Of a stretch of DNA of 64,000 bases, positions 1,115-53,000 are shown piece by piece. Source of the stretch: Tridacna crocea (lineage: Eukaryota > Mollusca > Bivalvia > Cardiida > Cardiidae). A program made the translations under genes and the position numbers. The notes under the pieces are model-generated. The model saw nothing but the letters and a program-made list of their open reading frames with translations. It made no database searches and was not told the origin of the DNA. The DNA is taken from the NCBI GenBank assembly GCA_943736015.1, contig OX031060.1, positions 14,769,501 through 14,833,500 of the forward strand, given 5' to 3'. The first letter of the stretch is position 1; every line of letters begins with the position of its first letter.

Positions 1115-4100
1115 CTTCAGATAGAAATTTAATTATTAACGATTTCACTGATTATCATAAATATTGAATTATTTATTAATTTCCACGAAAAACCAAAGTG
1201 GAGAAAACACTATTAACTCTTTACCAAAGGACAAAATTTTTAACTCCCCCAAATTGAAAGCATTTGCAGACAACAAAATAAAACTGCCTGAAAATTTGAA
1301 ATATTTCTGTAAAGGGTAGAAAATAGTGTGGAAAAGGAGAAAAGGCTGGCCACCAGCATTTTCTCCTTTTCCCGCGATGTTTTAAAAAGGCTTCTATCTT
1401 GGGGTTGTAAAAGCCAGGGGTTGTTAGGTAAAGAGTTAACAAGCAACTAAAGTATACCTAGAAAGAATATTCACGCTTCAAAAAATTATAACTTGAAACG
1501 CTGACAAGATGAGAGAGGTTATCAAATTCAGCATCCAATATTTCCTCTTCAAAACATACTAATGGGATTCGTGTAACATCGACTTTCATCACCAAAATCA
1601 TACAGATTCGACTGAGAGTCAAGATTCATACTCAATGCATGGAAGCAGTGTCAATCAGCCGATCGACTAAAGTCTGTTCTCATGTATTTGAAATCTTTAT
1701 CCATGTTTAACATTCATATTTCTCAAGAATGTTTTAAAAACTGTCTATTATAAAGTTCTTACTGGAAGTCTTGAGTCATGATTGAAAGTACCATGTATTA
1801 TAATATTCTTACAGGTAGATTTACCCTTGGACAGAAAAAAACAAAGAAGATAATTATGTTGGCAAACAGGAGAAAAATAAAGATTTACCATTTGGGAACA
1901 ATGTAGATCAAAATCACACGGTGGAGAACATGCAGTCTGATTTTGGACAGAATGATATTGTTCACTATTTTGAGAAATATTGTCAGAAATGCCAATAAAA
2001 TTGCAGTGTTTGTATATTTTTCTTAGTTGAAAAGTTATGATGACATACATTCAAAATTTCTGATTGTACTGATTATGTTCAACATACCTTAAACAGGTTG
2101 GTAATACAAGATATGTACATTTCCCTCATTAAATGATCCTGAAAAGCAAAGATAAAAATAAGCATGTTCTAATTTGGTCTGTTTAACTTGTTTTCTTTGC
2201 TGCCAAGTTTTACCAATAATACACATTTTCAAATTATTTTCTCAAATGTGTATCACAAACTAGTGTACAAAACAAACAAAAAAATCACAGTCATGAAATC
2301 ATTCACCTCCCTTTGATTCCTAAATCTATTAGACTTTTCCCTTTAACCATTCGTTGAAAAAGAAAAAAATTCACTCCAATACAAGTCATGATTTATGAGA
2401 AAACTTTAGCTCATCATTAGCCATTACAAGTGAAATAAGTTGAACATTTCCATGATGTAAGCAGAGATTGACTTTAACCTACTACCACACAATCCCTACT
2501 TTTGACATCCCTGAGAAAGAAGCCTTTTGAAAACATTGTGGGAAAAGCAGAAATTGCTGGTAACCAAAATTTTCTCCCTTTCCCACAATGTTTTCTACCC
2601 TTCACAAAACAAATTTCAAATTTTCAGTCACTTTTATTTTGTCATCTGCAAGTGCTTTCAATTTGGACCAGTCTAAAATATTGTCATTTGATAATGGGTT
2701 AAATTGCTTTGCTGAACATGATTAAGTTTTCTTTATGCTCTGTTAAATATAATGATATTGATTCTAAATGTATTTAATCATTATCATCATAAAAACAGTT
2801 TATCGACATTCAGTTTACTTACAGCCATGTCGTCTCTGTCAAGACCGCCCACCAGGGTTGTGTTTGTGTCAAAGTAAAGAGAAAAATTCTGTAGATCTAC
2901 AAGCTTATGCATCATCTCAACTTTATCTCGGCTTACAAATTTTGGAATCTACAAAGGACATGAAGAAAACATATTATGTGAATAAATTCATTCCATCATA
3001 AAGTCAGCTTTATGATCAACATCGGTATGATTACTTTAACCCTTTACCAAACAATCCCTGGTTTTTACAAGAAGTCTTTGAAAAAGATTGTGGGAAAAGG
3101 AGAAAAGGCTCCTTTTCCCACAATAATTTTGTTATCTGCAAGTGCTTTCAATTTGGACCAGGCTGAAATTTTGTTGTTTGGTAAAGAGTTAATTTAAAAC
3201 AACTGAGCTTCTCCATCATTTCTCAATCTACCTATTACTTATGACAAAGGTTCAGACTGATTAAAATTTAAGAGAAATGTACTTAATAAAATGGAAAAGC
3301 AGAAAACATCAAGGAGAAAGGACAAAATAATGATTACTAGCATTTTCTCCTTCTTCAAATTTTTTCCTTAGTTTTTCCTTTTCCTTAACCCTTTCCCAAA
3401 CGGCAAAATTTGGACCAGACCAAACTGAAAGCATTTTGCAGACAACAAATTAACAGTTGCTAAAAAGATGAGTTTTCTATATGATAGGGTAGCAAACATT
3501 ATTGGAAAAGGAGAAAATGCTGGTTACTTGCATTTTCTACTTTTCCCACAATGTTTTCAAAAGGCTTCTATTCCTGACCCGTAAAAAACAGGGATTGTTT
3601 GGGAAAGGGTTAAGGTTGTTTAAACTCTACACAGTGTGATAAAAGATTAAACCTGTACCTCACAATCCAGACTTTTAACGACCCTGTCAAAGGAAGCCTT
3701 CGAAGAACATTGTTGGAAAATGAGAAAATGCTGGTAACCAGCATTTTCTCCTTTTCCAACACTATTTTCTTCCCTTCCTAACACAAATTTGAATTCTTAA
3801 GTCACATTTATTTTGTCGTCTGCAAATGCTCTGAGTATGGATAAAATTTTTAGGTTTGGTAAAGAGTTAAACTTAACTGATAGCATACAAAGCAAAAAAA
3901 TTATCTTACCCATGATCCATCGGTGCTCTGTGCACTAAGAGTCTTTATAACTATACCGAAGGCAAAAGGACAGGCAGGATTTGTTACATCATCTTCATAT
4001 CTTATGTGAACATCCTTGATTTTTAGCTAAAATAATGACATAACTTAGGTAAATAACACGATGTAATCTCATATGAAGCCTTTACCACACAATCCTGACT

Positions 4101-7100
4101 TTTAACACCCCTGTGAAAGAAGCCTCTTGAAAACATTGTGGGGAAAGGAGAAAATGCTGATAAACAGCATTTTTTCCTTTTCCCAAAATGTTTTCTACCC
4201 TGCTGGAAACAAATTTCAATTCTTTAGTCACATTTATTTTGTTCTCTGCAAATGCTTTCGATTCGGATCAGTCTAGAATTTTATCGTTTGGTAAAGAGTG
4301 AAACTTATTAACCTGCAGATGAAGTTTATCTATTCTGCAGGCATTCACACTTTAACCCTTTGTCACACAATCTCTACTTTTAACGACCCTGAGTAAGAAA
4401 GCTTTTGAAAATGCTGGGAAAAGGGAAAAAATGCTGGTAGCCAGAATTTTCTTTCTTTCCCATAATGTTTTCTTTTTCCTTAACAAACAAATCCTATTAC
4501 TTTTGCCAAATTTACAAAATCATTTAGAAATGCTTCTAATATGGATCACTCTAAAATTTTGTTGTGTAGTAATAAGTTAAACCATTGTGGCAAATAAGAA
4601 AGCAAGTGTAAAATATAACTGAGCCATGCTAATGCTAAAGAGAGCTTAATACAAGCAAATCATCATGTGATCATGGGTCCATTAACCCTTTACCACACAA
4701 TGATGGACATTAGAAGGAAGCCTTTTGAAAACTTGAAAACACTGTGAGAAAAGGAGAAAATGCTGGTAACCAGCATTTCCTCCTTTTCTCACAATGTTTT
4801 CTACGCTTTCAAAGGTAAAGGGATATAAGGCATAATTATGGTCTATTGACCGACTGAATCATGAGGTCACCCGGTCCTTTGACATACAGAAAATTGAGCA
4901 ATAACAAAAAGTCTTGCCTAGGTCAGCCTGTGCGGAGTGCACAGGCTGATCTGAACCAATAGCTTTTGCAAATGCATTCAACCCTCTTTCAACAGAGCAT
5001 GGCTCATATAATTGTAGAAATGGTTAACCCTTTCCCAAACATCAAATTTTGACCTCTTCAAAACAAAAAGAGTTTGTAGACGACAATTTTGGATTTGGAG
5101 AAAATGGCAAAACATTCTCAAAAAGGGTAGAAAACACTGTGGAAAAAGGAGAAATTGCTCGTTACGAGCAATTTCTCCTTTTTCCACAGTGTTTTCAAAA
5201 GACTTTTACTGCAGACACGTAAAAACCAGGGCTTGTTTGGTAAAGGGTCAAGAGAAATCCCATATTCATACTATCCTTACCCCATGTAAGCCTCTAAAGT
5301 TGTTTTTGCCAAAGTATAGTTTTGAAAATGTTGTTACAAATTGTGAAATTGCCTCTATAAAGCATTTCTTCATTTGGCACAATGCTCACTTGCATCTCTT
5401 AACATTTCAAAAAAACAAACAAACAAGCATGTATGACTGAAAAAACTCTGACAGCATACCTGTAAGTTTTCCAAAATGTTAGCTAGAACAGATGTCCCAT
5501 ATGAAAACCAGGACGATGAACTCTGTTTGGCAACATTTTGTATCTGAAAAAGAAAAATTTCAACGTTCCTCAACCATTCTTTCAGTCTTTGCTGCAACAC
5601 TTCAACTTGAGTATCAACATAAACTCTAGACTACGCTTTGTCTTAAATTTAACAATTTGCAATTTATAGAAGTCCTTAAAAAGTCTATTCAAAATACTTA
5701 CTCCACATCAAGCAATACTGCTTAAACCATTACCACACATCTCTATTTTCGATGACCCTGAGAAAGAAGCCTTTAGAAAACATTGTGGGAAAAGGAGAAA
5801 ATGCTGGTGACCAGCATTTTCTCCTTTTCCAACAATGTTTTCTACCCTTCACAAAACAAATTTCAATATTTCAGTGACTTTTATTTTCTTGTGTGCAAAT
5901 ACTTTCGATTTGGACAAACCTAAACTTTTGTCGATTGGTCATGAGTTAACCTTTTCCGTGCCTTAGGCAAAAATCAGAGACTTTTGTGGATGACAAAGTT
6001 CAAGATCAGACTGCACAGAACATGCAGTCTGATCTTGGATCCATTCCTTCTGACCGTTAAGTTTAATGCATTGTATTTTCAGCCATTGAAAGAAGTCAAG
6101 TTTCTTCACCTGGTGCTGAAAGATTTAAGTTCACAGACTAGCCATTTGACTGGCTGGAAGATTCTATTCGAGTCAGTAAGATAGAATTTGATACTGAACC
6201 TAGAAGGGTTGTTGAACTTTATTCCAAGATTACATCATTCCAGTGATCTGTTCACTCGTACCTTGAGAGAAAGCTTTCAACATATGAAATGTTTCTCTAC
6301 TTCAATCAAATCTGACTTGTTATCTGTGCAAATGTTTTCAATTTTCATCTGCAAATGCTTTCAATATGGACAAGTCATTTTTAACTCTTTACCATGCAAT
6401 CCCAAGTTTTATAAACTTTGAAGAAAAAGCCTATTGAAAACATTGTTGGAAAAAGAAGAAAATGCTGGTAACCAGTGTAACCAATGTTTTCTACCCTTCC
6501 AAAAAATAAGTTTCACTTTTTGAGTCACATTTATTTTGTTGTCTGCACATACCTTTTTGGACAAGTCTTAATTTTTTATCTTTTGGTAAAGACTTAAAGA
6601 GTTGATCTGTTACCCACTCTAGTGATAAAGCAATTTTGATTAACCAATTACCACACAATCCCTACTTTTGACGACCCTGAGAAAGAGGCCTTTAGAAAAC
6701 TGTGGGAAAAGGAGAAAATGCTGGTAACCAGCATTTTCTCCTTTTCCCTCAATGTCTTCTACCCTTCACGAAACAAATTTCAAATTCTGAGCAACTTTTA
6801 TTGTGTCCTCTGCAAATGCTTTCAATTTGAATAAACCTAGAATATTGTCGCTAGGTAATGAGTTAAAGCTTGTAATAAAGATGGAAGTGAAGAACTTTGG
6901 CATGATAATTGAGGAAAAATACTTCAAACACACAAAAAAGGTACTCTGGAGAAAACAGTGTATACCTGCATCTTTGCCTCAAGAGCATCCAACAACTGTG
7001 TCTTCCTAGCTGCCTCAGCCGCTCTCTCCTTTTCGTCATCATACTGTTAGGTTAAAACATGAAAAAAGCAAAGAAATCAGTCTTTTAACTCTTCACCATA

Positions 7101-10100
7101 CAATCCCTGAGAAAGAAGCCTCTTGAAAACATTGTGAGAAAAGAAGAAAATGCTGGTAACCAGCATTTTCTCCTTTTCCCACAAAAACCAAATTTCACAT
7201 TTTCAGTCATCTTTATTTTGTTGTCTGCAAATGCTTTCAATTTGGGGCCAGTCTATTACTAGTATTTTGTCATTTGGGAAAGAGTTAATCAAGAATTTAA
7301 TTTTCCAATGAGAAACCAGCATTTTCTCCTTTTCCCAGAATGTTTTGTATCCTTCCCAAATCAAATTTCAATTTTTGAGCTACAATAATTTTGTTGTCTG
7401 CAAATGCTCTTAATATGGACCAGTTTATTATTTTGTTGTTTGGTAAAGAGTTAATGCATTTCTGTGATTTGTCATAACAAGCAAATTATCATATATTCAA
7501 GGGTCCAGTAAATCCATTTCGGCAAAAAAAAGGACTGAATCGGCTGAATCCTGGTGTAGAATGGTCCTTGGGCAAACACAAAATTTGCCAAAAGCAAAAG
7601 TTTCAACCCAGGTCAGCCTGCATGGACTGTTGATAATTTTCGAAGATGCATTAAACCTCCCTTTTACAGAGCATGGCTCAAAAGCACATTGTGCAATGGT
7701 GAGATAAGAAAAATATACAATAATATGTTGGTTGCAGTAACAACACTGATATTAGGTTGACCGACTGTAGCTATGCCTTGACCCTTTAACAAACAATCCC
7801 TGCCTTTTATGACTTTTATGAAGACCTCTGCAAACATTGTAGGAAAAGGAGAAAAATGCTGGCAAACATTTTCTCCTTTTCCCACGATGTTTTCTACTCT
7901 TCTGAAGTCAACTTTCAAATCTTGAGCCATGTTTATTTTGTGGTCTGCTAATGCTTTCAATTTGGACAAGTCTAAAATTTTGTCGATTGGTAAAGAGTTA
8001 GGCCTGTTATAATTTATATTCTTTTCAGCAGTTTTATAAGGCAGATGTCGATGAAGCTGTCTATATGAGATCATGTGTAAAACTTAGATTATAAAACTAC
8101 CACTACCACTATCTTAGAAGAGAGAAAAAGACCTGGGCCCGTATTCACCAACCATTCTTAAGAACGTTCTTTGTCTTATTCTCCAAAATTTTCTACAATT
8201 GTAAGTAACACAACTTCTGATTGGCTAAACCAGTTGTGTTACTTACAAACTTGGAAAACCTTGGAGAATAAGACTGAGAATATTCTCAAGAATGGTTGGT
8301 GAATACTGGCCCTGTATTGCTTAACAGCACTTTTTGCCTTATCCTGGATTTTACAAGTAATGCAACTTCTTGTTGGCCAAACTCTTACAGTTTTAGAAAA
8401 CTGTTGAGAATTCAACTAGTAATGTCAATGAGGGTGGACTGATGAATATATGCCTGAAACATCGAAGATAAATATAAAACCCTTTTGAAAATTATGTAGT
8501 CCTAAAAAGTTGGATTAATTATTTCTACATTACCTCTGACTCTAGCTGAGGTCCGGCCACTAAATATAATCTCTCTATACTGATTACCCAGGGTTCACTA
8601 TGAAGACGTCGCAAAGGTATCTGTAGAGTGATCTTTCCAATAAATCCTTTAACAAGAAAAAACAATCAAGTTTTAACCCCTTATCAAACAATCCCTGGTT
8701 TTTGTGGCCCCGAAATAGACACCATCTATAACAAACATTGTGGGAAAAGGAGAAAATGGTAACCAGCATTTTCTCCTTACCCTACAATGTTTTCTTCTCT
8801 TCCACAGTCAAGTTCCAATTTTTGAGTTACGTTTATTTTGCCATCTGCAATGCTTTCAATTTGGACCAGTCTAAATTTCTGTTGTTTGGTAAAGAGTTAA
8901 ACCTTTACTCCAAAGATATCCATTTCTACGCACTGCTTGTATGAGCCTTTGGAAAACATTGTGGCAAAAGGTGAAATTGCTCGAGACTAAAGGTGTCATA
9001 AACACATGAGAAACAACTTCATCCTTGCTGTTATTTAGGGTCAATTAGAGATACCATAGAAATGCCTTATAGGGTAAAGGGTTAAAGTGAGCCTGGAAAT
9101 GAGAGTTCACAACCTGTATTCACCTACCATTCTGAGGAACATTCTTAGTATCATTTTACAAAAATGTCTAAACTTGAAAGTAACACAACTTCTGATTGGC
9201 TAACCCAAATGGTTTGGCCAATCAGAAAATGTGTTGATTTTCTAAATCTGATTTATAAAAATTAAATTGAAAACAGTTCGTCAATGCAGATCCAGGACCC
9301 CAACTTATGAAACAAGTTTCTAAAGCCCTAAAGTGCCTTGCACAACTATACATGTAGATTCTTTTGCAGACAATGTAGATCAGGATCAGACTGCACAAAA
9401 TGTGAAAAATAAGCAATCTGATCTTTCATCTACACCATCCAAACGACAATATTTTAGGCTTGTTCAAATCGAAACATTTGCAGACGACAAAATAAAAGTG
9501 ACTCAAACTTCAAAATTCCTTTTGTGAAGGCTAGAAAATGTTGTGGGAAAAGGAGAAAATGCTGGTTACCAGCATTTTCTCCTTTTCCCACAATGTTTTC
9601 TAAAGGCTTCATTCTCAGAGTTGTCAAAAATCGGGACTGTGTGGTAAAGGGTTAAATTATTACAGACAATAGCCATATATTTACAATTATCTTACTCTTA
9701 TTCTAGAATGAAAATGTCAATTGGGAAAATTCGAGACTTTTCAGGCTAATATTGCTTTAATTCTAAATTGCGCAACAAGCCATCTGATTGACTGACATAA
9801 TCTTAGATGATCAGATGGTTCATATTTAATTCAGAATTATAGTAGCATTCAACTCTTTACCAAACAAAACAAATTTTTGGACTGGACCCAATTCAAAGCA
9901 TCTACAAACAACAAACTAAATCTTGTTAATATGATGATTTCTGATAGTTTGATAGGATAGAAAATATTATGGGAAAAGGAGAAAATGCTGGTTGCCAGTA
10001 TTTTCTCCTTTTCCCACAATGTTTTCTGTAGGATTGTTTCTCAGGGTCGTTAGAAGTCAGGATTGTGTGGGAAAGAATTAGTATGATTGATGAGTAGTCT

Positions 10101-15163: not shown

Positions 15164-15201
15164 TATTGGTATATAATGTTAGTGATTAAAAAAAAAACTG
15201 T

Positions 15202-15430
15202 TTAACCCATTACCAGACAATCCCTACTTTTGACGACCCTGAGAAAGAAGCCTTTAGAAAACATTGTGGCAAAAGGAAAAAATGCTGGTAACCAGCATTT
15301 TATTTTTTTCCCACAATGTTTTATACCCTTCACAAAACAAATTTCAAATTTTAATCACTTTTATTTTGTGGTCTGCAAATGCTTTCGATTTGGACAAACC
15401 TTAAATTTTGTTGTTTGGTAATGAGTTCAA
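15202..15430 (+). mobile_element. family A MITE, full length
   Basis: TTAACCCATTACC to GGTAATGAGTTCAA, 48 bp outside the left target duplication of the Mutator-like element. Confidence 0.86.
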
Positions 15431-15486
15431 CAAAATTGAAATATCAGCCTGGTTGAAATTTTCTTGTCAAATGACTTGATGAAAGG

Positions 15487-15978
15487 CGGTCATACTAAAA
15501 CACGCCGTACCAGAAAAACACGCCGTACCATACGCCGTACGGATTAAAACACGCCGTACCAAAATGTGAATTATAGTGAATGCTTTTTTTGGTACTTTTA
15601 TATTGAAAAACATATAATCTAACCTAAGTAGCGATATTACCAGCCAATTTTTCATATTTGTCAAGTTATTTGCCAATTTTAGACATTCTTGTACGGGACG
15701 ACCAACAGGTGCCCGTTACGCCGTACCAATTACATGAGCGCCGTACGGATTTTGAGGCACAAAACAACTAAATTAACTAGAATGTATGGCACAATATGCA
15801 ATTATCTACTTATTTACCAGTTCATGTTGTTCTATTTCATGTCTTACAGAGGTTGCAGGTACATTGCAAGCATTTATCCAGCAGATGTTTACAGAAGGGA
15901 AATAACTCTGAAATTTATACAGAGAACTTTACGTAAAACATCAGTTCAATGAAACCTTGTGGAAAAACGAGAAATTGC
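15487..15978 (+). repeat. left TIR of Mutator-like element
   Basis: Near-inverse of 18150-18643 along its length, including ATATAATCTAACCTAAG, TACGGGACGACCAACAGGTG and GGAAATAACTCTG segments. The repeated ACGCCGTACC cluster at 15499-15560 may be a transposase-binding region. Confidence 0.85.
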
Positions 15979-15984
15979 TTATGA

Positions 15985-16171
15985 CCGTTTCTCTTATTTT
16001 CAGATCCGGAAAAATAAGGCTTTTGAAAATATCCTGGGAAAAAGACAAAATACTAGTAACCAGTATTTTCTCCTTCTCATATAATGTTTTCTACCCTCCA
16101 AGAACAAATTTCAGTTGTGTCATCTGCAAATTTAGAACAGTCTACAATTTTGTCGTTTGGTAAAAAGTTAA
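15985..16171 (+). repeat. family A MITE, left end lost, inside MULE
   Basis: Diverged core (CTAGTAACCAGTATTTTCTCC), long arm, and right end GGTAAAAAGTTAA. Confidence 0.75.
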
Positions 16172-16279
16172 TGATTGTAGAACGTGGACTGTATTTTTTA
16201 ATTCTTTAATCAATTTTTTCCATTTAGTGCTGGTTTTTCCATGCTGTATCGTTGCGCACTGTGAAAAAATTGACTTTTA

Positions 16280-16408
16280 TCCATACGTCAAATTTTAGAC
16301 CCATCCAAACTGAAACAGATTGCAGACGACAATTGTAAACTTGATGAAAATGGCGGAGAGTTCTCCAAAAGGGTAGAAAACACGGTATGGAAAAATAAGG
16401 ATAGGTGA
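16280..16408 (-). repeat. family A MITE fragment
   Basis: Long arm of the GCTCG subfamily (CAGATTGCAGACGACAATTG, AAAGGGTAGAAAACAC); nothing beyond the start of the palindrome. Confidence 0.6.
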
Positions 16409-16557
16409 TCTTAGATACACCCAATTTGTGTGCCCTAAGTAACACTTTCTCAACCTTTACATGTGCCGATTTGAATGATATCTTCCGAAAATTGTCATCA
16501 CAACTCTTGCAATCAATAAACTGTAAATAAATATTGAGATAGATCTATTCTATTTTT

Positions 16558-17060
16558 TATGTCCCCGCATCGGAAGATTTGGGCCATATAGCTTTACCCT
16601 TGTCCGCCTGTCCGTCTGCATAAACGTGGGCATTAGTGTTTCACAAACACGTGTTCTTTTCTTTTGTCCCGGTGATTTTTGTTTACCAATAAAAAATGTA
16701 AAGAAATTTGACTAACAAATGTTGATTGATTGATTTTATGGTGATTTACGCCACTTTAAGTACATTATTTCACTGCGGAAGCTCACATATTCATTTACTT
16801 CCTGTTTTTGCCAGTACTAGGCAAGGGCCCTGAATTTTCTGGCCTCAGGAAATCCCTGAGAAAGTCCCCATTTTCGCGTCATTTTTATTTGTTGAGAAAG
16901 GGGATGATGAGGGTAACGTCTTTTCCTGTTTACTTCAACGTATTGGCACTGAAAAGGGCCGGTTTTAAGACATTTTTTCGCAAAGATAGATTTCTGTGAA
17001 ATTGGTGGCCTTAGCAAGGGCCATTGGTGTTTGGAAGGGTCATTATCGGTTGGCACTTAG
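16558..17060. other. MULE interior, low-information sequence
   Basis: Contains a short GTCCGCCTGTCCGTCTG run typical of mollusc repeats and repeated GGGCCATT words. Two overlapping open frames here have no recognisable motif. Confidence 0.4.
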
Positions 17061-17112
17061 AAGGGCCATTTTCTTACAGTCACACATTTAAGGAAACATG
17101 GCTTTATTATAC

Positions 17113-17353
17113 CTGATCTGTTTCCACAAGCAGCGATGTTTCCATCTGCTAAGCGGAACAGCTTCATCCCTTCTTGGAGGTATTTCTTCACATTAAGTGT
17201 GATGATGACTTGCGAGCCCTTCTTCAGTAGGGTCTTGGAAGCGGCGAAGTGAATGTACTGGCGATTCATTGTCCTCAAGCCTTCTTCTTTTATGTGTTCG
17301 TAGGCTTGTAATGTAGTGCCTTCAGAGCAGTATTCAATTCCTTTTGGTCTTAT
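17113..17353 (-). pseudogene. TPT1/KptA-like tRNA 2'-phosphotransferase exon captured in MULE
   Basis: Read on the minus strand from the stop at 17356-17354, the frame encodes GIEYCSEGTTLQAYEHIKEE, GLRTMNRQYIHFAASKTLLK and VKKYLQEGMKLFRLADGNIA, ending at a plausible donor CAG|GTATAA. This follows the C-terminal lobe of KptA/TPT1: GT...I..GL..M.R..IHFA, then a hydrophobic strand, then G..(F)R.A(D/N)G. TPT1 removes the 2'-phosphate from spliced tRNA using NAD. The usual HGT reads EGT here and the N-terminal lobe with its Arg-His residues was not found, so it is probably a captured fragment. Alternatively it is one exon of a diverged gene. No acceptor with a pyrimidine tract is evident. Confidence 0.6.
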
Positions 17354-17366
17354 CTATTTTGGTCAT

Positions 17367-17561
17367 CTAAACCTTTCCCAGACAACCCTTTTTTAAGTGT
17401 CTGCAGTATAAATCTTTTGAAAATACTGTGAAAACAAGAAATTGCTCTTGTGTTCTAACCTTTTGGAGAACTTCCCACCATTTTCACCAAGTTTTAAATT
17501 GTCGTCTGCAAACTAGTTCAGTTTGGGAGAGTCTAATTTTTTTTGTTTGGGAAAGGGTTAA
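17367..17561 (+). repeat. family A MITE, GCTCG subfamily, diverged
   Basis: CTAAACCTTTCCCAGACAAC to GGGAAAGGG-TTAA. It abuts the upstream side of the TPT1-like exon. Confidence 0.7.
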
Positions 17562-17623
17562 TTTATTCACAGTGTGCAACGATACTAACTGTAAAACACC
17601 AGAACTAGTAATGTAAAAATGGA

Positions 17624-17844
17624 TTAACCCATTACCACACAATCCCTACTTTTGACGCCCCTGAGAAAGAAGCCTAGAGAAAACATTGTGGGAAAAGGAG
17701 AAAATTCTGGTAACCAGCATTTTCTCCTTTTCCCACAATCTTTCCTATCCTTCACAAAACAAATTTCAAATTTTCAGTCACTTTTGTCGTCTGCTAATGC
17801 TTTCAATTTGGATGTCTAAATATTGTCGTGTGGTAATGAGTTAA
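17624..17844 (+). mobile_element. family A MITE, full length
   Basis: TTAACCCATTACC to GGTAATGAGTTAA with a small deletion in the long arm. Confidence 0.86.
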
Positions 17845-18011
17845 TTAATGAATGAAAAAATATAACTGAGTTTTAATATTACAAATTCATAAAATAGTAC
17901 CTAGTTTAAAATAATAACAGTGAAATAAACTAAAAACAAAAGGACTCATCGTAGAACAACATCCACGTCGTTGAGTCTGAAAACATTTTAAGGGCAAAAA
18001 GTTGTATGTAC

Positions 18012-18165
18012 AACCATTTAATCTTAACCAAACGACAATTTTCAAATGTTCCAAATTTGCTGACGACACAAATGAAATTTGTTAGGGGAGGGTTACCAAC
18101 ATTTTCTTCTTTTCCCAAAATATTTTCAATAACCTTGTTTTTCAAGACCAGCAATTTCTTATTTT
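18012..18165 (-). repeat. family A MITE, degenerate
   Basis: TTAACCAAACGACAATTTTC, TTTGCTGACGACACAAATGA and AACATTTTCTTCTTTTCCC remain recognisable. Confidence 0.55.
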
Positions 18166-18643
18166 TTCACAAGGTTTCATTAAAGTAATGAAACGTAAAG
18201 TTCTCTATATAAACTTCATCAGTACCACAGAGTTATTTCCCTTCTGTAAATATCTGCTGGATGCTTGACATGTACTTACAACCTCTGTAAGACATGAAAT
18301 AGAACAACATGAACTCGTAAATAAGTAGATAATTGCATATTGTGCCATACATTCTTATTAATTTAGTTGTTTTGTGCCTCAAAATTCATACGGCGCTCAT
18401 GTAATTGGTACGGCGTAATGGGCACCTGTTGGTCCCGTACAAGAATGTCTATAAATACCAATAACTTGACAAATGTGAAAAATTTGGCAGTAATATTGCT
18501 GCTTAGGTTAGATTATATGTTTTTCAATATAAAAATACCAAAAAAAGCATACAATATAATTCACATTTTGGTACGGCGTGTTTTAATCCGTACGGCGTAT
18601 GGTACGGCGTATTTTTCTGGTACGGCGTGTTTTAGTAGGACCC
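18150..18643 (-). repeat. right TIR of Mutator-like element
   Basis: Inverse partner of 15487-15978, ending GTTTTAGTAGGACCC next to the 9-bp duplication at 18644-18652. Confidence 0.85.
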
Positions 18644-18652
18644 GATGAAAGG

Positions 18653-26000: not shown

Positions 26001-29000
26001 AAAGAACAAGGGGATGTTTGGTACTTTACAGCAGGGGACGCCTGCCCAGAAGATCCTAAAAATAATTTGACAACATCTATCAATTTCAAGTGTGGGCCAT
26101 TAATTGTAAGTTTTCATACTCAATTTAACCCTGTACTCCATACATGTAGATACTCATCTCTACGCTTTGCTTGTAGGAGCCTTTGGAAAACATTGTGGCA
26201 AAAGGTGAAATTGCTCGTCACAAGCAATTTCATCTTTGCCACAAGTTTTTCAATGCTATCAAAAGGTGTCATATACACATAAGAAATAGCTTTATCCTTG
26301 CTGTTATTTTAGGGTCAATTAGAGATACCACAGAAATGCCTTATGGGGTAAAGGGTTTACTCTTTACTAAACAACAGCATTATACATGTGTTCAAATTGA
26401 AAGCATTTGCAAAGGACAAATGAAACATTGAAAGTGCAGAAATCCTTGTGGGACAAGGAGAAAATGCTAAATACTAGCATTTTCTCTTTTTCTCACAAGG
26501 TTTTCAAAATGTTCGTTAAAATTCTGAATTGTTAAAAGTCTAAAATTCCATCAAGTAGTAAAGAGTGAACAGCTGTTGAAAGTTTTGTGAAAAAAGGAGC
26601 AAATGCTTCTGGAAAGCAGATAATCCGTTTTCAGTAATTTTGATACCAGTATTTAATCATTTACCAAACAATCCCTGGTTTTCACGTCACTAAGGAAGAA
26701 GCCGTTTGAAACCACAGTGGAAAAAGGAGAAAATGCAGGTAACCAGCACTTTCTCCTTTTCCTGCACTGTTTTCTTGCCTTCCCAAAACAAACTTTAATG
26801 TCTGAGTCACATTAATTTTGTTTTCAAATGCTTTCAATTTAGACATGTCTAAAATGTTGCCCTTTCATAAAGACTTAACAGACAATATTTTCCGTACTTT
26901 GTCGTTTGGTAAAGACTAACAGACAATATTTCAATGTACTTTGTCTTTTTGTCAGTTATAATTGAGCCATACTCTGTGAAAAGGGGGCTTAATGCATCTG
27001 TGAAAAATATTGACCCAGGTCAGTCTGCACAGTCCGTGCAGGCTGACCTGGGTCGAAACTTTTCGCTCTTGGTCAGGTTTTTGTATGTGGAAGGACAACT
27101 CTACATTATGACTCCACTAGTTGTTGGAGGGAATAAATTTCAAGGATCAGCAATTATGTGATGGCTCTCTTGGTATAATGAATCTCTTTACCACACAATC
27201 CCGACTTTTAAGGACCCTGAGAAAGAAGCCTTTTGAAAACATTGTTGGGAAGTGAGAAAATGCTGGTAACCAGCATTTTCTCCTTTTTCCACAATGTATT
27301 TTACCCTTCCCAAACCAAATTTGAAATTTTCAGTCATATTTATTTTGTCATCTGCAAATGCTTTCAATTTGGACCAGTCTATGATTCCGTGGTTTGATAA
27401 AGAGTTAAGCCCCCCATTGCCAGAACATGGCTCAATTGTTTCGGGTTTTTCTAGAATTTGTGGCTACAATAGTTGGTTTATCTTTACATATTTAGACCAC
27501 TTAAGGTCTTCAAACCAGATTTTGACCAAAAATTTTTTTTAGTGGGAGAGAGCTGATATTTGGTAAGAAAAAATATGTATTATATGACTGTTTACCCTTA
27601 GTGAGGGAAATGCAAAAGAAACACTGAAAAAAAAATGCGTCCTTGTAGACTCCAACCCACAACCTTCAAAACCATAGTTGGTGACTCAACCAATTGAGTG
27701 AAGGGAGGCCATCAATATTTTATTGTGCTAAAAATGTATTAATTATTTGTTGTATTGTTACAGTTATCCTGATGATATGCATGTGAGAAAGATGGTCAGT
27801 GACTCAAACAGAAAGTTGTATCAGTACTGTTGTGAAAAAAGACAGGAAACTTATGTGCAGGTGCATTGATCCCCATGATATGACCTAAGCTGCTAAGCCA
27901 GTGTTACACTCCAATACAAATAAGCAAGTGTTAACCCATTACCAAACGACAATATTTTAGAGTGGTCTAAATCGAAAGCATTTGCAGACGACAAAAAAAA
28001 TGTGACTGAAAATCTGAAATTTGTTTTTCGAAGGGTAGAAAACATTGTGGGAAAAGGAGAAAATGCTGGTTACCAGCATTTTCTCCTTTTCCCACAATGT
28101 TTTCTAAAGGCTTCTTTCTCAGGGGCGTCAAAAGTAGGGATCGTGTGGTAATGGGTTAAAATCATGGGAAAAATGGAAAAACTGCTTCTTGTAAACACTT
28201 TGTTTTCTTCTCACTGCAATTCATTTGGATTAAAAAAAGAAAGATCAACTGCAAAAAGTAATGAATTAACAATAAGTTTCAGACTTGTCTAAATGTTACC
28301 CTTGACCATACAATGATGAGTTTTAACTTCCTCTTTTGTGTGCAGTGGTTTGACGCCCTTTTTTATTCATTTCAGGGTTCACCAAAATTTCTAGATTATG
28401 CAGCATGTGTTAGCTACTTTGAATGGGAATCTCATGTATTCTGTAAAGGGCAAAAGCCAGAGAAGGATGTGCCATGCTACTTGTACGACAATCATGGCAA
28501 CAGATATGATTTATCTCCCTTGGCAAAGAGCAAAGATGCATATCTAGTCTCGTCAGAAATGGACACTAATGTGTACATCAATGTATGCCGTGATATAAAT
28601 CCAGGTAAGGATGAAAAAAAATGATATCCAGGTAAAGTAAAAAAATTGGGTCCTGTTGCTCAGTTTACTAGATGTATTGTCATGTACAGACCATTTTGCT
28701 TGCAACAAGCAAAAAGGGGCATTCGGACATTTGCGTAAAGTGTTGTGTTGGATCAGCCTGCGCCATCCGTGCAGGGTAATCTGAAACATCACTTTTCGAC
28801 TTCTTTTGATATTATGTTAAAGTAGACTTGAGCAAAACAGAAAACTACCTAAAACATCACAGTATGGTTGATAAAAATGTTTAGTCATAGAATACAAGCT
28901 AAATACAAACAATCACATTTTGTCCCAAAATAGTGTATCTATTGGCTGCTTGTCCCTTTACCAAAACACCAGTCATGTGGGAGGCAGTAGCATTTGGGAA

Positions 29001-47000: not shown

Positions 47001-50000
47001 TTTGGTAACCATTAAAGCATTTTAGACACTTTTTATACCCCTGCAAAATTAATGTTTTGGGGGGTATACTGGAATCAGCCTGTTGCTTCATGTGTCTGTC
47101 CATGTGTCCGTCAGTCCATGTGTGCGTCTGTCTGTGTGTCCATCTGTGTACAAAATACTAGTAAATTTGTGTTTGGTGTCGCGAACTCCTACAGTTTTCC
47201 TTCAATTGTATTGAAACTTTGCACATCTATTTATCATATAGTGAAGATTTGCAAGATGTATTTTTTCAAATGTCAGCTCTTCCTTGATGAAGAATCATTG
47301 CCCCTCGAACATAACACTTTTTTCTGCCACAGTGCTGGTGGGGGTATTAAGTCACATTCAGTGACAGCTTTAGTTCCACTTGAAATTGTCACCAGAAATC
47401 AAGCGCCCACAGTAGTGCTCTGACACCCAGGGCACTCCTGTAGGGCATGTAGTAAGGAATGCCTGCTTTGTGCAGTGTGAACGAATTTAACCAGTCTGAT
47501 AAAACCCTTTGCCATACAATATTATGTTTCAAGGATGCTGAAGGTGAAGGATCTTGTAAGCATTGTTGGGAAAAATCACCATTACCCACAATGTTTTATG
47601 TTTTATTCAAAAAGTCCCTGTATTTAAGCTTCATTTAATATGTCGTCTGCAAATGCTTTCAATCTAAACAGGTGTAAAGTTTTAACCCTTAGGCTGCTAA
47701 GTACAACTCACTAACCTTTTGCGGACAGTGTAGATCAAGATCAGACTACACAGAACATGCAGTCTGATCTTGGATCTTTACTATCTGATTAGGAGAGTAT
47801 ATTTCCTCAAAATACAACTTTGAATTAGCAAGTTTTTATTTTTTACTATCGAGTCGAAAATTTCATTGTAGTTACTAATATTTAGCATACAGGTTAACCC
47901 TTTCCCAAACGATCCCAGGTTTTTACGGGTTTGGAATAGTAGCCTTTTGAAAACATTGTGGGAAAAGGAGAAAATGCTGGTAACCAGCATTCTCTCCTTT
48001 TCCCACAATGTTTACTACCCTATCATAGATTGAAATCATCTTCTCAGCAAGAGTTGAATTGTCGTCTGCAAATGCTTTCAATTCAGTCCAAAAGTTCGTC
48101 GTTTGGGAAAGGGTTAATAGATGATGAAGTGGAAAGCAACATTGTGTCACCAATGAAATGAAAATGTTCTATACAATTTTATTGTAGATCTCTAGTACAT
48201 ATAGTGGAATGCAGGATGGGCCATGCGCATACTCAATCATCTGGCATACATCAGCAGCATGTCCTCTTACAGAGCTTGCACCCACAGAGAGCTGCACAAT
48301 AAAGGACAATGTGACTGACTATGTGTATAACCTTCAACCCCTGAGGAAGCCAGATGTAGAGGCATATTCTGTGAAAGTAGGAAACTTGGAATACAAGGTA
48401 TGATTTGTTCTGCACTTTTACTTTTTGACTGGTCCAAATTGAGAGCATTAGCAGACGACAAAAATAAATGTGACAAAAGAATTGAAATTTGTTCTAGGAA
48501 GGCAAGGAAACATTGTGGGAAAAGAGAAAATGCATGGTTTAGTGACAGTAGTTTCCAGTGACGTCAGTTTTCATTGAATTTGGGCACTCCACAGGGAATA
48601 TCTATTTCGTCAGTATACTTGATTCGTGAGATCATATAACAGGAAAATTTCACTTAACCCTTTACCAGATGACAAAATTTCAGTCCCGTCCAAATTGAAA
48701 GTATTTGCTGACTATAATTTTAATGTGGCTCAAATGATGTAATGTTTCTTTGATGGGGTAGAAAACTTTGTGGGAAAAGGAGAAAATAATGGTTACCAGC
48801 ATTTTCTGCTTTTCCCACAATATTTTCAAAAGCCATCTTTTTCAGGAGTGTTAAAAGTCGGCATTGTGTGGTAAAGGGTTGATGAACTTTCTAAAGGGTA
48901 AAACTTTTCAGTATAATAAATTTGTTGTACGGTCAGGTGGCAGGGGACTTGGAAACTTTTTCACTGCTGTCTCGAATCATGTCGCCACCTTGCCTTCGGC
49001 TCGGGGCAACATGTTTCACCAAAGCCGTGAACAAGTTTCCAAGTCTCCTGCCACTTGACTGTACAACTCATAAAATGTGCTTATTTTTTTCACATACCAT
49101 GTATTTTTAGCTGAACATCTGTGGGAAGCTAGCAACATCTATCTGTGGTGATGCAAATCAGAATGCCTCTGTTTGTGAGGTGAGAAATGCGACAAAGAGG
49201 AAACTAGCTGAGGACAAGTACCTGTTACAATTCAATGGAGACGGAAGAATGGCTATGACATATGAAGGAATTCGGCTGATCGGTGGTAAGAAAGTTTAAT
49301 TTTTCGTAAAAGTATACTTAAAATATATGAGGCATGCTTAGGCAAAAAGGGGCTTAACTCTTTACCGAACGACAATATTTTAGGGTTGTCCAAATTTGCA
49401 GACGACAAAATAAAAGTGACTGAAAATTTTAAATTTTTTTTGTGAAAGGTAGAAAAAATTGTGGGAAAAGGAGAAAATGCTGGTAACCAGCATTTTCTCC
49501 TTTCCCACAATGTTTTCCAATGGCTTCTTTCTCAGGGTAGTCAAAAGTAGGGATTGCGTGGTAATGGGTTAATGCATATCCTCAATCTATTATACAAAGC
49601 ATGCCATCACATATTTATAGATCCATAATAGCCACTTTTTATTAACAACCGACTAATCTTGAGATAGACTGGTGTTTAGACATGCAGAAAATTAATCCAT
49701 AGCGAAAAGTTTCGGCTTAGGTCACCCTGCATGCTCTGCGCAGCCTGACCTAGGTCTGTACTTCTCACAGATGTGTGAAACCTACTTTTGGTCACTCAAA
49801 TGATAATTTGTTTCATTGAGTAACATAATTGTAAGGTTCCGAAATACTTGAAAATTATGAAGAAGGTTGACTACATGTCCTGTTTTATATCCATTTTTTT
49901 AGGTGATCGTGTCCAAGTTCAAATAGATTTTGAGTGTCAACGAGACATAGAGATTGGGGAGCCTGAGTTTGTGCGCCATGAGGGAGATACATATATTTTC

Positions 50001-53000
50001 CGATTTTTGACTGCTCTTGCCTGTAGACCCATGGAAATGGACTGTTTGGCACAGGATGAAGATGGGAACCAGTACAACTTGGGGCTTCTGACTAGAGCGA
50101 CTGCATGGACTGCGTTGGATATTAGAGACAGAAATACAAAATATTACATTAATGTTTGTAAACCAGTCAACAATGTTACAGGCTGCCCAGGTAGGGTAAC
50201 AGTTATCAGACCAGAATTCACCTTTGTCTCTTTTAGGGAAGTCATTAAAAGTCGGGATTGTGTGGTATAGAGTTAAATCCCATGATGAGACGGGTGAACC
50301 TTTCAAATCGCCACCAGCTAACTACATTTTAGAATTCACCAAATTGAAAGCATTTGCAGAAGACATATCAAATGTGACTTAAATGGCATTGATTTATTTA
50401 TAATAGGATTTAGAAAACATTCTGGGAAAAGGAAAAAATGCTGTTCACCAGCATTTTCTCCTTTTCCTATGGTGTTTTCTAAAGGATTCTTACTTGAGGG
50501 CCTCTAAAGGTCAGGATTGTTCAGTAAAGGGTTAATCCCTTACTCCATAGATACTCATTTATACGCATTGCTTGTAGGAGCCTTTGGAAAACATTGTGAC
50601 AAAAGGTGAAATTGCTTGTGACGAGCAATTTCACCTTTTGGCACAATGTTTTGTATGCTATCAAAAGGTGTCATATACGCATAAGAAACGGCATCATCCT
50701 TGCTGTTATATAGGGTCAATTAGAGATACAATAGAAATGCCTTATGGGGTAAAGGGTTAAATAGCTATTGCATGGTACATGATTCAAAATCAAAACAGGG
50801 TTTTGAGAAGCAATTCTTGAATAACTGATTATCCTTTTTAAACATAATCCAAAGTTTTACAACCCCCATAGTAGAAAGCTGTTGAAAACAGTGTTGGAAA
50901 AGCAGAATACACTGGTAAAAAGCATTTTCTCCTTTTCCCACAATGTTTTCAATCTCATCACTTACAAATTCAATCATTTTGAGTCATAGTTAATTTTGTT
51001 GTCTGCATATGCTTTTAATTATACCCCAGTAAAACGAATGTTTTCGGGGGTATACTGGAATCAGCCTGTCTGTATGTTTGTCCGTCCAAGTGTCTGTCCC
51101 TGTGTCGGTCTGTGTACAAAATGCTAGCAAAAGCCTCTTTCTGTCAAAGCGCTAGCGGGGGTATTAAGTCATATTCAGTGACAGCTCAAGCTTTGTCAGG
51201 CCAAAAAATTTTGTCATTTGACAAAGAGTTATGCTATAAGTTTCTTTGTAGATGAACCAATAGGGGGCTGTCAGTATGCTAGCAATGGAAAATGGTTCAG
51301 CATGGGGTACCTCCAATCTAAACCGATTGCCCGCAGTGATGGATCAGTGACCTTGACATATAGGAATGGGGATATTTGCCATAAAGGTACCGACAAAGAG
51401 TCACACAGAAGTACAAGAATCAACTTTTATTGTTCTCAAGTAGAGGTAAGTACATTTATATAGTATTTAACCATTTATCACACAGTGACGATTTTTGACG
51501 AGCCTGTGGTAGAATCCTTCCTGAAAACATTGTGGGAAAAGGAGAAAATGCTGGTAACCAGCATTTTCTCCTTTTCCCACAATGTTTTCTATCTTATCAA
51601 TAAACAGTTGCACCATATTGAAATTGTCGTCTGCAAATGCTTTGAATTTGAAAAGTGCTAAAATTTTGTCGTTTGGTAAAGAATTAAGTATCATATGATT
51701 TTTTTGCCTTTTTACAAACCAAAGGATGAGGTTAACAGTTAACCTTTTACCACATAGTGACAAATTTTGATGCCCCAAGGAAAGAAGCCTTATGAGAAAG
51801 TTGTGGGAAAAGGAGATAATGCTGGTAATTAGTATTTTATCCTTTTTCCCACTATATTTTCTACTCTATCAAAGAACGATTGCAGGATTTGATCCAGATT
51901 GAGATTGTTGCAACTGCTTTCAATTTGGACAGGACTAGAATCTTGTCGTCTGGTAAAGGATTAAGAATTCAGAGGGTAGCCATGTATGTTTCAGTGCCTT
52001 GGACAGAACATGTAATAGAGACTGTTCTAAAAATAGCTAGGGTGTTTCAGACATAATTTTAGTCATATAGCATCAACCAGTGCACCTGCTCATGTATTTC
52101 TGCAGTTTCCTTAACACCATACTCTTTCCAAGCCACTTGGTGCTATCTCATGTAAATTAATATTGTCAAAAAATGTTCAACGGTGCAGGAAAAATGAATC
52201 ACAAAGTAGTAAGTATTACAGATCTTTGAAAAGACTTTGGCCATGCTTGGTATCTGGATTAATAAATTAATTGATAAAAAGAAATGTGATTTAGACGTTG
52301 AATGCTCCTTTAAGTTGTTGATAAATTTACCCCTTTGACTTCCAGGATTCTGTCTGTCTTTCTGGTTAAGGTGAAAGGAACTTTTATTTTATGAAACAGT
52401 CCTGTCTGAACTATGTTCATCTACAAAACTTACCCATGGTAGCTCAGAAGGAAACACTTAGGATGTAAAGCACAAAATCTAAACCTTCAACCCATTGCCA
52501 GATAGATTGCTTGTTTTAATAACTTATTAGAAGTAAGCTTTAGAAAATATTGTAGAAAAGGGAGAAGGTGCTGGTAACCAGCATTTTCTTCTTTCCCCAC
52601 AATGTTATCTGTCATTTATAAAAAAGTTAAACACACACTCTTAATTTGAACCACATGAGCCAACTTGTTTCAGTGTTACCAACTCGGAAATTTTTATTGA
52701 ATGTGTAAGATTTAAGTCTTACTTAAGACAAATTTTTAAGACAAAGTTTTAGAGATCATTATTTTATTGGTACACTTTGAACCAACTCTGGAAAAGCAGC
52801 CTATGGTTTAGAAAAAATGTTAATTTGTAATGTCAGGAAGGTATGGGTTAGTGTGATGGCCACCATGGTTAATTAAAAACTGACCAAATGCTTGTTACAC
52901 ACCAATTGACCCAATTCATTATCAGCCTTTGTGCATTACTTCATTAGAAAACTTATGTGAAATTTTCATTCCATTTCAGTTTGGACCTGTGTTTGATGCA

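What the first reader, a model, noticed from the sequence alone, without database searches (positions are those of the whole stretch)
15478..18652. Pack-MULE-like element in a probable mollusc carrying a TPT1/KptA exon
Seen: an exact 9-bp duplication GATGAAAGG, terminal inverted repeats of about 490 bp, clustered CGCCGTAC subterminal motifs, no transposase, and an internal minus-strand exon that reads as the C-terminal lobe of tRNA 2'-phosphotransferase with a usable splice donor. Known: 9-bp duplications and very long TIRs define Mutator-like elements, and Pack-MULEs capture host gene pieces, mostly described in plants. Inference: this is a host-gene-capturing MULE. A tRNA-processing, NAD-using fold as cargo would be unusual.
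Basis: partly seen in the sequence, partly recalled or inferred. Interest (0 to 1): 0.85.

Follow-up and report, generated by a model that had tools for sequence, protein, structure and literature searches.

The report
Mutator-type transposon with tRNA-enzyme gene relic
This is a shortened member of a jumping-gene family, and its longer relatives carry a gene for an RNA-end-modifying enzyme that looks like their own rather than a piece recently stolen from the host's copy.

Summary
The element at window 15478-18652 is real: exact 9-bp duplication, 493-bp terminal inverted repeats at 88.5%, CGCCGTAC 11 times against 0.06 expected, and a TPT1/KptA fragment (PF01885, E 1.9e-11). It is multicopy (256 terminus matches, control 0), with 8- or 9-bp duplications and empty sites. 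A complete 8.8-kb relative has nearly the same ends, a 9-bp duplication and an open 1041-codon MULE-type transposase frame. So it is Mutator-like.

The 'captured host exon with splice donor' reading fails. The frame runs through the supposed donor to the natural C-terminus. A 5.4-kb relative (L061) holds a full single-exon TPT1 gene beside half a transposase gene. Full TPT1 frames also sit in two further element families, pointing to the same (CGGTC) end. These proteins are 49-62% identical to one another but 18-27% to a host-type TPT1 exon. Family A versus C gives dN/dS about 0.18 (one pair).

Best reading: an internal-deletion derivative of a MULE lineage that has long carried TPT1 as its own accessory gene. 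No copy with both genes whole was found, and what the enzyme does for the element is inferred.

The parts
15478..15486 (.). target-site duplication, left copy (GATGAAAGG)
   Evidence: exact match to 18644-18652
15487..15979 (+). left terminal inverted repeat, the CGGTC end, with six CGCCGTAC motifs
   Evidence: shared by the family
16235..16382 (.). inner inverted repeat arm (78% to 17449-17596), in the part of the interior shared by sister copies
16389..16469 (-). scrap resembling residues 92-118 of the 1041-codon MULE-type transposase frame (window E 0.001; best sister copy 1.6e-5); points opposite to the transposase half in L061
17060..17353 (-). TPT1/KptA remnant: 98-codon open stretch; homology to the full TPT1 of L061 from about 17337 to the natural stop
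17449..17596 (.). inner inverted repeat arm, partner of 16235-16382
17628..17834 (.). nested small insert with inverted ends (17623-17640 / 17828-17845), not spanned by any other scored copy
   Evidence: interior matches of many listed copies stop at 17627 and resume at 17835; ends
18150..18643 (-). right terminal inverted repeat, the GGGTC end, with five CGCCGTAC motifs
18644..18652 (.). target-site duplication, right copy

Best explanation
The window element is a non-autonomous, internally deleted Mutator-like element. It moves by cut-and-paste, driven in trans by a MULE-type transposase made by longer relatives. Its TPT1 piece is the 3' end of an accessory gene that the lineage itself carries: a single-exon RNA 2'-phosphotransferase / NAD-dependent nucleic-acid end modifier, encoded on the CGGTC-end side and, in the one long member seen (L061), divergent from the transposase. 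Shown: family, ends, duplications, empty sites, linkage of TPT1 with a transposase remnant inside TIR elements, full TPT1 frames in three element families, shared polarity, and a constraint signature between families A and C (one pair). Inferred: mobilisation in trans, a single acquisition before the families split, and enzyme activity. Most likely role (inference only): acting on 5'-phosphate or 2'-phosphate ends of RNA or DNA during the element's life cycle. The window's own fragment lacks the N-terminal RNA lobe and is most likely inert.
For: Copies and ends: 256 terminus matches, 0 for the reversed control. Among 14 complete copies (window plus 13 of 20 fetched loci; 7 incomplete by the script's test) 7 have an exact 9-bp duplication and 7 an 8-bp one, one of these with a mismatch; the 8-bp ones were read from the printed flanks. 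In 4 of 13 copies the joined flanks align through the junction to other repeats. L061: 5.4 kb, ends GGGTCC / CGGTC, 8-bp duplication ATAACTAA, 181-codon TPT1, 243-codon transposase C-terminal half on the other strand. Six further TIR-bearing copies hold 3' parts of both genes head to head. The transposase half is 64% identical to the C-terminus of a 1041-codon frame in a complete element with ends GGGTCATACTAAAA / CGGTCATACTAAAA, 1.39-kb TIRs and duplication GATTCCGTG. Family B: ends GGGTCCCCCTAAA / CGGTCCCCCTAAA, 9-bp duplication GGAATAAAC in L018. Family C (L073): CGGTCC left end, 8-bp TTTTTAAT. TPT1 points to the CGGTC end in 29 of 32 A pairs and 11 of 11 B pairs that hold a TPT1 hit, and in L061 and L073. 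A versus C: dN 0.18, dS 0.97. The Arg-His-Arg-Arg tetrad is whole in L061 and in family B L013.
Against: No element was found with both a full transposase and a full TPT1. The complete transposase element on C2 has no PF01885 hit. No transposase similarity was found in the B and C sequences examined, of which the B copy was not complete. Two of four tetrad positions are changed in the only family C copy, L073. Within family B dN/dS is 0.71 and 0.84 in the two informative comparisons, 0.28 in a nearly identical pair. 3 of 32 A pairs have TPT1 pointing the other way; 5 of 37 A pairs and 8 of 19 B pairs hold no TPT1 hit. The scrap at 16389-16469 points the wrong way for the transposase of L061 and is unexplained. 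L073's right end lacks about 6 outer bases.
Confidence: 0.8

Rival explanations
1. Pack-MULE in the strict sense: the element captured an exon of the host TPT1 gene and carries it as passive cargo.
For: The window copy has no transposase gene and contains only part of TPT1.
Against: The host-type exon is 18-27% identical to the element genes over 55 residues, the element genes 49-62% to one another; full single-exon TPT1 occurs in a longer member and in two other families, mostly with the same polarity; the claimed donor lies inside the frame. One further PF01885 match over the same part of the profile, C2:55595406, was not examined.
Confidence: 0.06
2. Ancient capture with passive retention: a TPT1-like gene was captured whole by an early member and has since hitch-hiked with no function for the element.
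For: Most fragments are decayed: 12 of 24 aligned window-type fragments carry indels; B copies differ with dN/dS 0.71-0.84; 8 of 19 B pairs lack a TPT1 hit; L073 has lost two tetrad residues.
Against: Full frames persist in three diverged families, and A versus C gives dN/dS 0.18 at dS near 1, unlike free drift. That is one pair by a simple counting method.
Confidence: 0.14
3. The elements belong to another superfamily with 8-9-bp duplications (for example Merlin or a P-like group) and the MULE transposase is incidental.
For: The 8/9-bp mix also fits Merlin-type elements (recalled, from no call); the PF10551 score of the 1041-codon protein is 25.5 bits, under the 27.6 cut-off.
Against: The complete transposase element has nearly the same end and a 9-bp duplication, its DNA match to PF10551 is over the cut-off (29.2 bits), and L061 joins the window-type TIR with a homologous transposase half.
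Confidence: 0.05

Closest known systems
Mutator-like elements with additional ORFs (MuDR mudrB, Mutyl mutB, Hiun vanB/vanC; PMC6446971, introduction read whole, other passages)
   Same: long TIRs, 8-11-bp duplications, a MULE transposase, and an extra element-borne gene
   Different: the extra gene is a TPT1/KptA RNA 2'-phosphotransferase, not among the extra genes named in the introduction and table passages seen
Rehavkus and MuDR-6_HM groups (table passage of PMC6446971)
   Same: PHD finger, 9-bp duplication and TIRs of 26-400 bp (Rehavkus); ovarian-tumour gene (MuDR-6_HM). The 1041-codon relative has a PHD match under the cut-off and a weak OTU match
   Different: membership not tested by a transposase tree; TPT1 not listed for either in that passage
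Pack-MULEs / animal Pack-TIRs (PMC8277862, passages seen)
   Same: non-autonomous, TIR-bounded, contains a gene piece
   Different: the piece descends from a gene of the element lineage, not from the host-type TPT1; that survey reports no Pack-MULE in its 100 animal genomes
Tpt1/KptA/TRPT1 family (PF01885; PMC6333775, passages seen)
   Same: RNA lobe plus NAD lobe; the Arg-His-Arg-Arg tetrad is whole in L061 and in family B L013
   Different: carried by a DNA transposon; two tetrad residues lost in L073

Membership tests
Mutator-like element (MULE) | 8-11-bp target-site duplication | tested here: met
   window 9 bp; 7 of 14 complete copies 9 bp, 7 of 14 8 bp, one of these with one mismatch
Mutator-like element (MULE) | long terminal inverted repeats | tested here: met
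   493 bp, 88.5%
Mutator-like element (MULE) | MULE-type DDE transposase in the element or in an autonomous relative with the same ends | tested here: met
   only an 81-bp scrap in the window copy; 243-codon half in L061; 1041-codon frame in a relative with nearly the same ends, PF10551 E 1.9e-5 but 25.5 bits against a cut-off of 27.6, 29.2 bits and over the cut-off in the genome scan. Catalytic residues were not mapped
Pack-MULE | no transposase of its own | tested here: met
Pack-MULE | internal piece derived from a host gene | tested here: not met
   host-type exon 18-27% identical, element genes 49-62% among themselves; that exon has one match in the genome; the unexamined match C2:55595406 remains
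Tpt1/KptA | PF01885 domain | tested here: met
   window fragment 44.8 bits; full genes 82.8, 69.5 and 93 bits; cut-off 26
Tpt1/KptA | Arg-His-Arg-Arg active-site tetrad | tested here: met
   R13 H14 R54 R114 whole in L061 and in family B L013, by alignment to 6e3a (R18 H19 R68 R121) and 7kw8 and by A1; L073 has L54 and H114; the window fragment keeps only the fourth, its other positions being deleted
Tpt1/KptA | 2'-phosphotransferase or end-capping activity | not testable with these tools
   needs purified protein
Rehavkus | transposase groups with Rehavkus in a tree | not tested
   no reference transposases were at hand

The most novel reading that the evidence does not exclude
An animal MULE lineage encodes its own Tpt1-type enzyme as a working accessory protein that treats nucleic-acid ends for the element: ADP-ribose capping of 5'-phosphate ends of excised DNA or of its transcripts, or finishing of RNA ligation after TIR-containing stretches are cut out of host mRNAs ('SOS splicing', described in passages of PMC13247085), so that insertions do less harm.
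Probability: 0.25. Interest if true: 0.88.

Novelty: new variant of a known kind. Interest (0 to 1): 0.62.

Why it matters
MULEs with extra genes are known, but none of the papers listed by the searches here appears, by title and abstract start, to link TPT1/KptA to a transposon. If the gene is a conserved part of the element, it gives a natural setting for an enzyme whose role outside fungal tRNA splicing is open, and ties DNA transposition to NAD-dependent nucleic-acid end chemistry. It also warns about TPT1 copy counts in such genomes: of 77 PF01885 matches at least 32 lie within 5 kb of one of the 144 A or B termini listed, out of 474.

Tried and rejected
Splice-donor reading: rejected because the frame continues to the conserved C-terminus. 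Host-capture reading: rejected by identities and by the single genome match of the host-type exon. Prokaryotic source of the element TPT1: the genome-contig scan with alignment A1 gave 66 pattern matches and no confirmed relative; it finds only relatives holding those short motifs, so it excludes little. Transposase inside B or C elements: none found, with one B copy incomplete at its right side. A constraint test of the window-type fragments (24 loci, pooled pN/pS 0.57) is weak: L025 is the window copy itself, L027 lies in the same place as L029, codons with several changes were counted as nonsynonymous, and copies are not independent. My first mapping of the catalytic tetrad took the wrong arginine for the third position and made L061 look damaged; the check alignments corrected it: L061 keeps all four. 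Host species and 'mollusc' were not tested. The PF01885 match C2:55595406, over the same profile part as the host-type exon, was not followed up.
Full report
Observation. GATGAAAGG flanks it exactly. The TIRs run 15487-15979 and 18150-18643, 88.5% identical over 503 columns with 21 gap columns. CGCCGTAC occurs 11 times in the 64-kb window, always in these TIRs, against 0.06 expected. On the minus strand 17353-17060 is a 98-codon open stretch; of its first 81 residues, 12-73 match PF01885 with 44.8 bits, E 1.9e-11, profile positions 106-173 of 177.

A family, not a singleton. The genome holding the window (1.05 Gb, 31 contigs) gives 127 forward and 129 reverse matches to the terminal 25-mer at up to 2 mismatches, and none to the reversed control. 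The interior is shared too, at up to 96% among the 40 candidates scored (of 12,424 first-look candidates); in many of them matches stop at window 17627 and resume at 17835, so 17628-17834 is a later small insert. Of 20 loci fetched, 13 are complete by the test and 7 are not. Together with the window copy, 7 of 14 have an exact 9-bp duplication; reading the printed flanks, the other 7 have an 8-bp duplication, one with a mismatch. Joined flanks with one duplication removed align through the junction to other repeats in 4 of 13 copies (L036, L041, L045, L046): these are empty sites.

Polarised ends. In complete copies one end begins CGGTC and the other GGGTC. Among adjacent inward-facing pairs in the places listed (100 of 256 for family A, pairs up to 6 kb; the 44 zero-mismatch places of 218 for family B, pairs up to 9 kb), 37 of 37 A pairs and 19 of 19 B pairs have one of each. 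Two longer A pairs, 11 and 14.5 kb, were left out by the length limit.

Longer member. A full-length TPT1 hit on C16 lies beside this family's TIR. The 9-kb fetch L061 shows a 5.4-kb element, 1861-7275, with TIRs 83-85% identical to the window's and 8-bp duplication ATAACTAA. It holds a 181-codon TPT1 frame on one strand (5535-6077; PF01885 82.8 bits) and, divergently, a 243-codon frame (5165-4437). The 5' part of that second gene is missing or decayed. Six further TIR-bearing copies (L064-L068, L070) hold a 3' part of the second gene and a 3' part of TPT1 head to head. TPT1 and the second gene are thus linked inside the element family.

The second gene is a MULE-type transposase. It is 64% identical to the C-terminus of a 1041-codon frame on C2. 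That protein matches PF10551 (MULE) with E 1.9e-5 but 25.5 bits, under the curated 27.6; PHD with 21.8 bits, under 24; OTU only at E 0.095. In the genome scan the same place scores 29.2 bits, over the PF10551 cut-off. The element around it is complete: ends GGGTCATACTAAAATACGCCC and CGGTCATACTAAAATACGCCC against the window's CGGTCATACTAAAACACGCCG, TIRs of 1.39 kb at 97.7%, duplication GATTCCGTG (duplication read from the printed flanks). It has no PF01885 hit.

TPT1 in two more element families. Family B: TPT1 54% identical to L061's, in elements ending GGGTCCCCCTAAACACAG / CGGTCCCCCTAAACACAG; L018 has a perfect 9-bp duplication GGAATAAAC. The B terminus matches 218 places, control 0. Family C is one copy (L073, C2:16172500-16181500): an unbroken 181-codon TPT1, 70% identical to L061's, between inverted repeats of about 125 bp at 84%, left end CGGTCC, 8-bp duplication TTTTTAAT; its right end lacks about 6 outer bases. 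TPT1 points to the CGGTC end in 29 of 32 A pairs and 11 of 11 B pairs that hold a TPT1 hit; 5 of 37 A pairs, of which 4 are under 600 bp, and 8 of 19 B pairs hold none. One search repeated the count with all 150 hits and all 77 and gave the same numbers. L061 and L073 agree with the rule. The three exceptions (C1:40645645, C2:46433909, C4:21758510) share a shorter TPT1 match of query residues 19-81 and look like one inverted subgroup.

Not the host gene. An exon-like frame on C3 (L024) matches PF01885 positions 28-84 and, among solved structures, tRNA 2'-phosphotransferase 1 best (7yw2, E 5.7e-9; that this is a mammalian protein is recalled). It has one match in the genome, itself. A second PF01885 match over the same profile part, C2:55595406, was not examined. 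Over 55 aligned residues the C3 exon is 18-27% identical to the element genes, which are 49-62% identical to one another. The supposed splice donor at 17113 lies inside the frame; what follows, GIIKPCFLKCVTVRKWPF, matches the end of the full-length proteins. The window's TPT1 homology to L061 begins near 17337, opposite L061 5799, so the fragment is a 5'-truncated gene, not an exon.

Constraint and active site. L061 against L073 gives dN 0.18, dS 0.97 (Nei-Gojobori in a script, one pair). A against B is saturated at silent sites with dN about 0.45. Within B, L013 against L016 and L017 gives 0.71 and 0.84; L016 against L017, nearly identical, 0.28. [quoted passage not shown] R18, H19, R68, R121 in 6e3a) maps to columns 13, 14, 54 and 114 of alignment A1. 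L061 and family B L013 keep all four. L073 has leucine at 54 and histidine at 114, so that copy is probably not active. L061 and L075 share a tryptophan at column 65, where the other two have arginine; this is not a tetrad position.

Mechanism. Most likely the window copy arose from a longer TPT1-bearing MULE by internal deletion and was spread by a transposase supplied in trans; the TPT1 remnant is inherited, not captured by this copy. [quoted passage not shown] PMC8385414, passages), and animals cut transposons out of mRNAs and religate the RNA by RTCB (PMC13247085, passages; the primary paper was not held). End-capping or RNA repair is possible; neither is shown.

Comparison with the literature. 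PMC6446971 (introduction whole; other passages) names MULE extra genes without TPT1, a PHD finger in Rehavkus and an ovarian-tumour gene in MuDR-6_HM. PMC8277862 (passages) found no Pack-MULE in its animal genomes. PMC10294476 (passages) reports MULEs across the mollusc genomes analysed. Searches pairing TPT1, KptA or TRPT1 with transposon terms listed 2, 7, 0, 8 and 10 papers, the last the top of 41,746; none, by title and abstract start, describes TPT1 in a transposon. Most were not opened, and only open-licence papers are held.

What remains open. No copy with both genes whole was found. The scrap at 16389-16469 resembles transposase residues 92-118 but points towards the CGGTC end, against the transposase of L061. 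Whether TPT1 was acquired once or more than once is inferred from identities, not from a tree with outside species.

Noticed in passing
window 2473-2703, 4087-4298, 15201-15430, 27931-28161, 55502-55728: A roughly 210-240-bp repeat related to the insert at 17628-17834 recurs in the window, and copies of it are the empty sites of some MULE copies; the insert's ends read ATTAACCCATTACC / GGTAATGAGTTAAT, which suggests TTAA targets.
   Followed up: partly
window 49848-50270 (+): Exon-like frame matching the cation-independent mannose-6-phosphate receptor repeat (PF00878, 72.8 bits).
   Followed up: no
G000 C13:4626280-4628087 with C13:4635211, and C13:5454924-5456650 with C13:5444697: Two decayed places where a TPT1 match lies about 7 and 10 kb from a related transposase on the same strand, unlike the arrangement in L061.
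   Followed up: no
G000 C1:40645645, C2:46433909, C4:21758510: Family A subgroup with TPT1 inverted relative to the element ends and internal TAG codons.
   Followed up: partly
G000 C2:55595406-55595576: PF01885 match over profile positions 27-84 (38.5 bits), the same part as the host-type exon but not found by it.
   Followed up: no
L061 and L075 TPT1: Both share tryptophan in HYIWAAAGHS where L013 and L073 have arginine, so the change predates their divergence.
   Followed up: partly
L037 (C1:20476800-20484200): Two interior copies of the window family lie within 7 kb in opposite orientation, both with shortened right parts.
   Followed up: no
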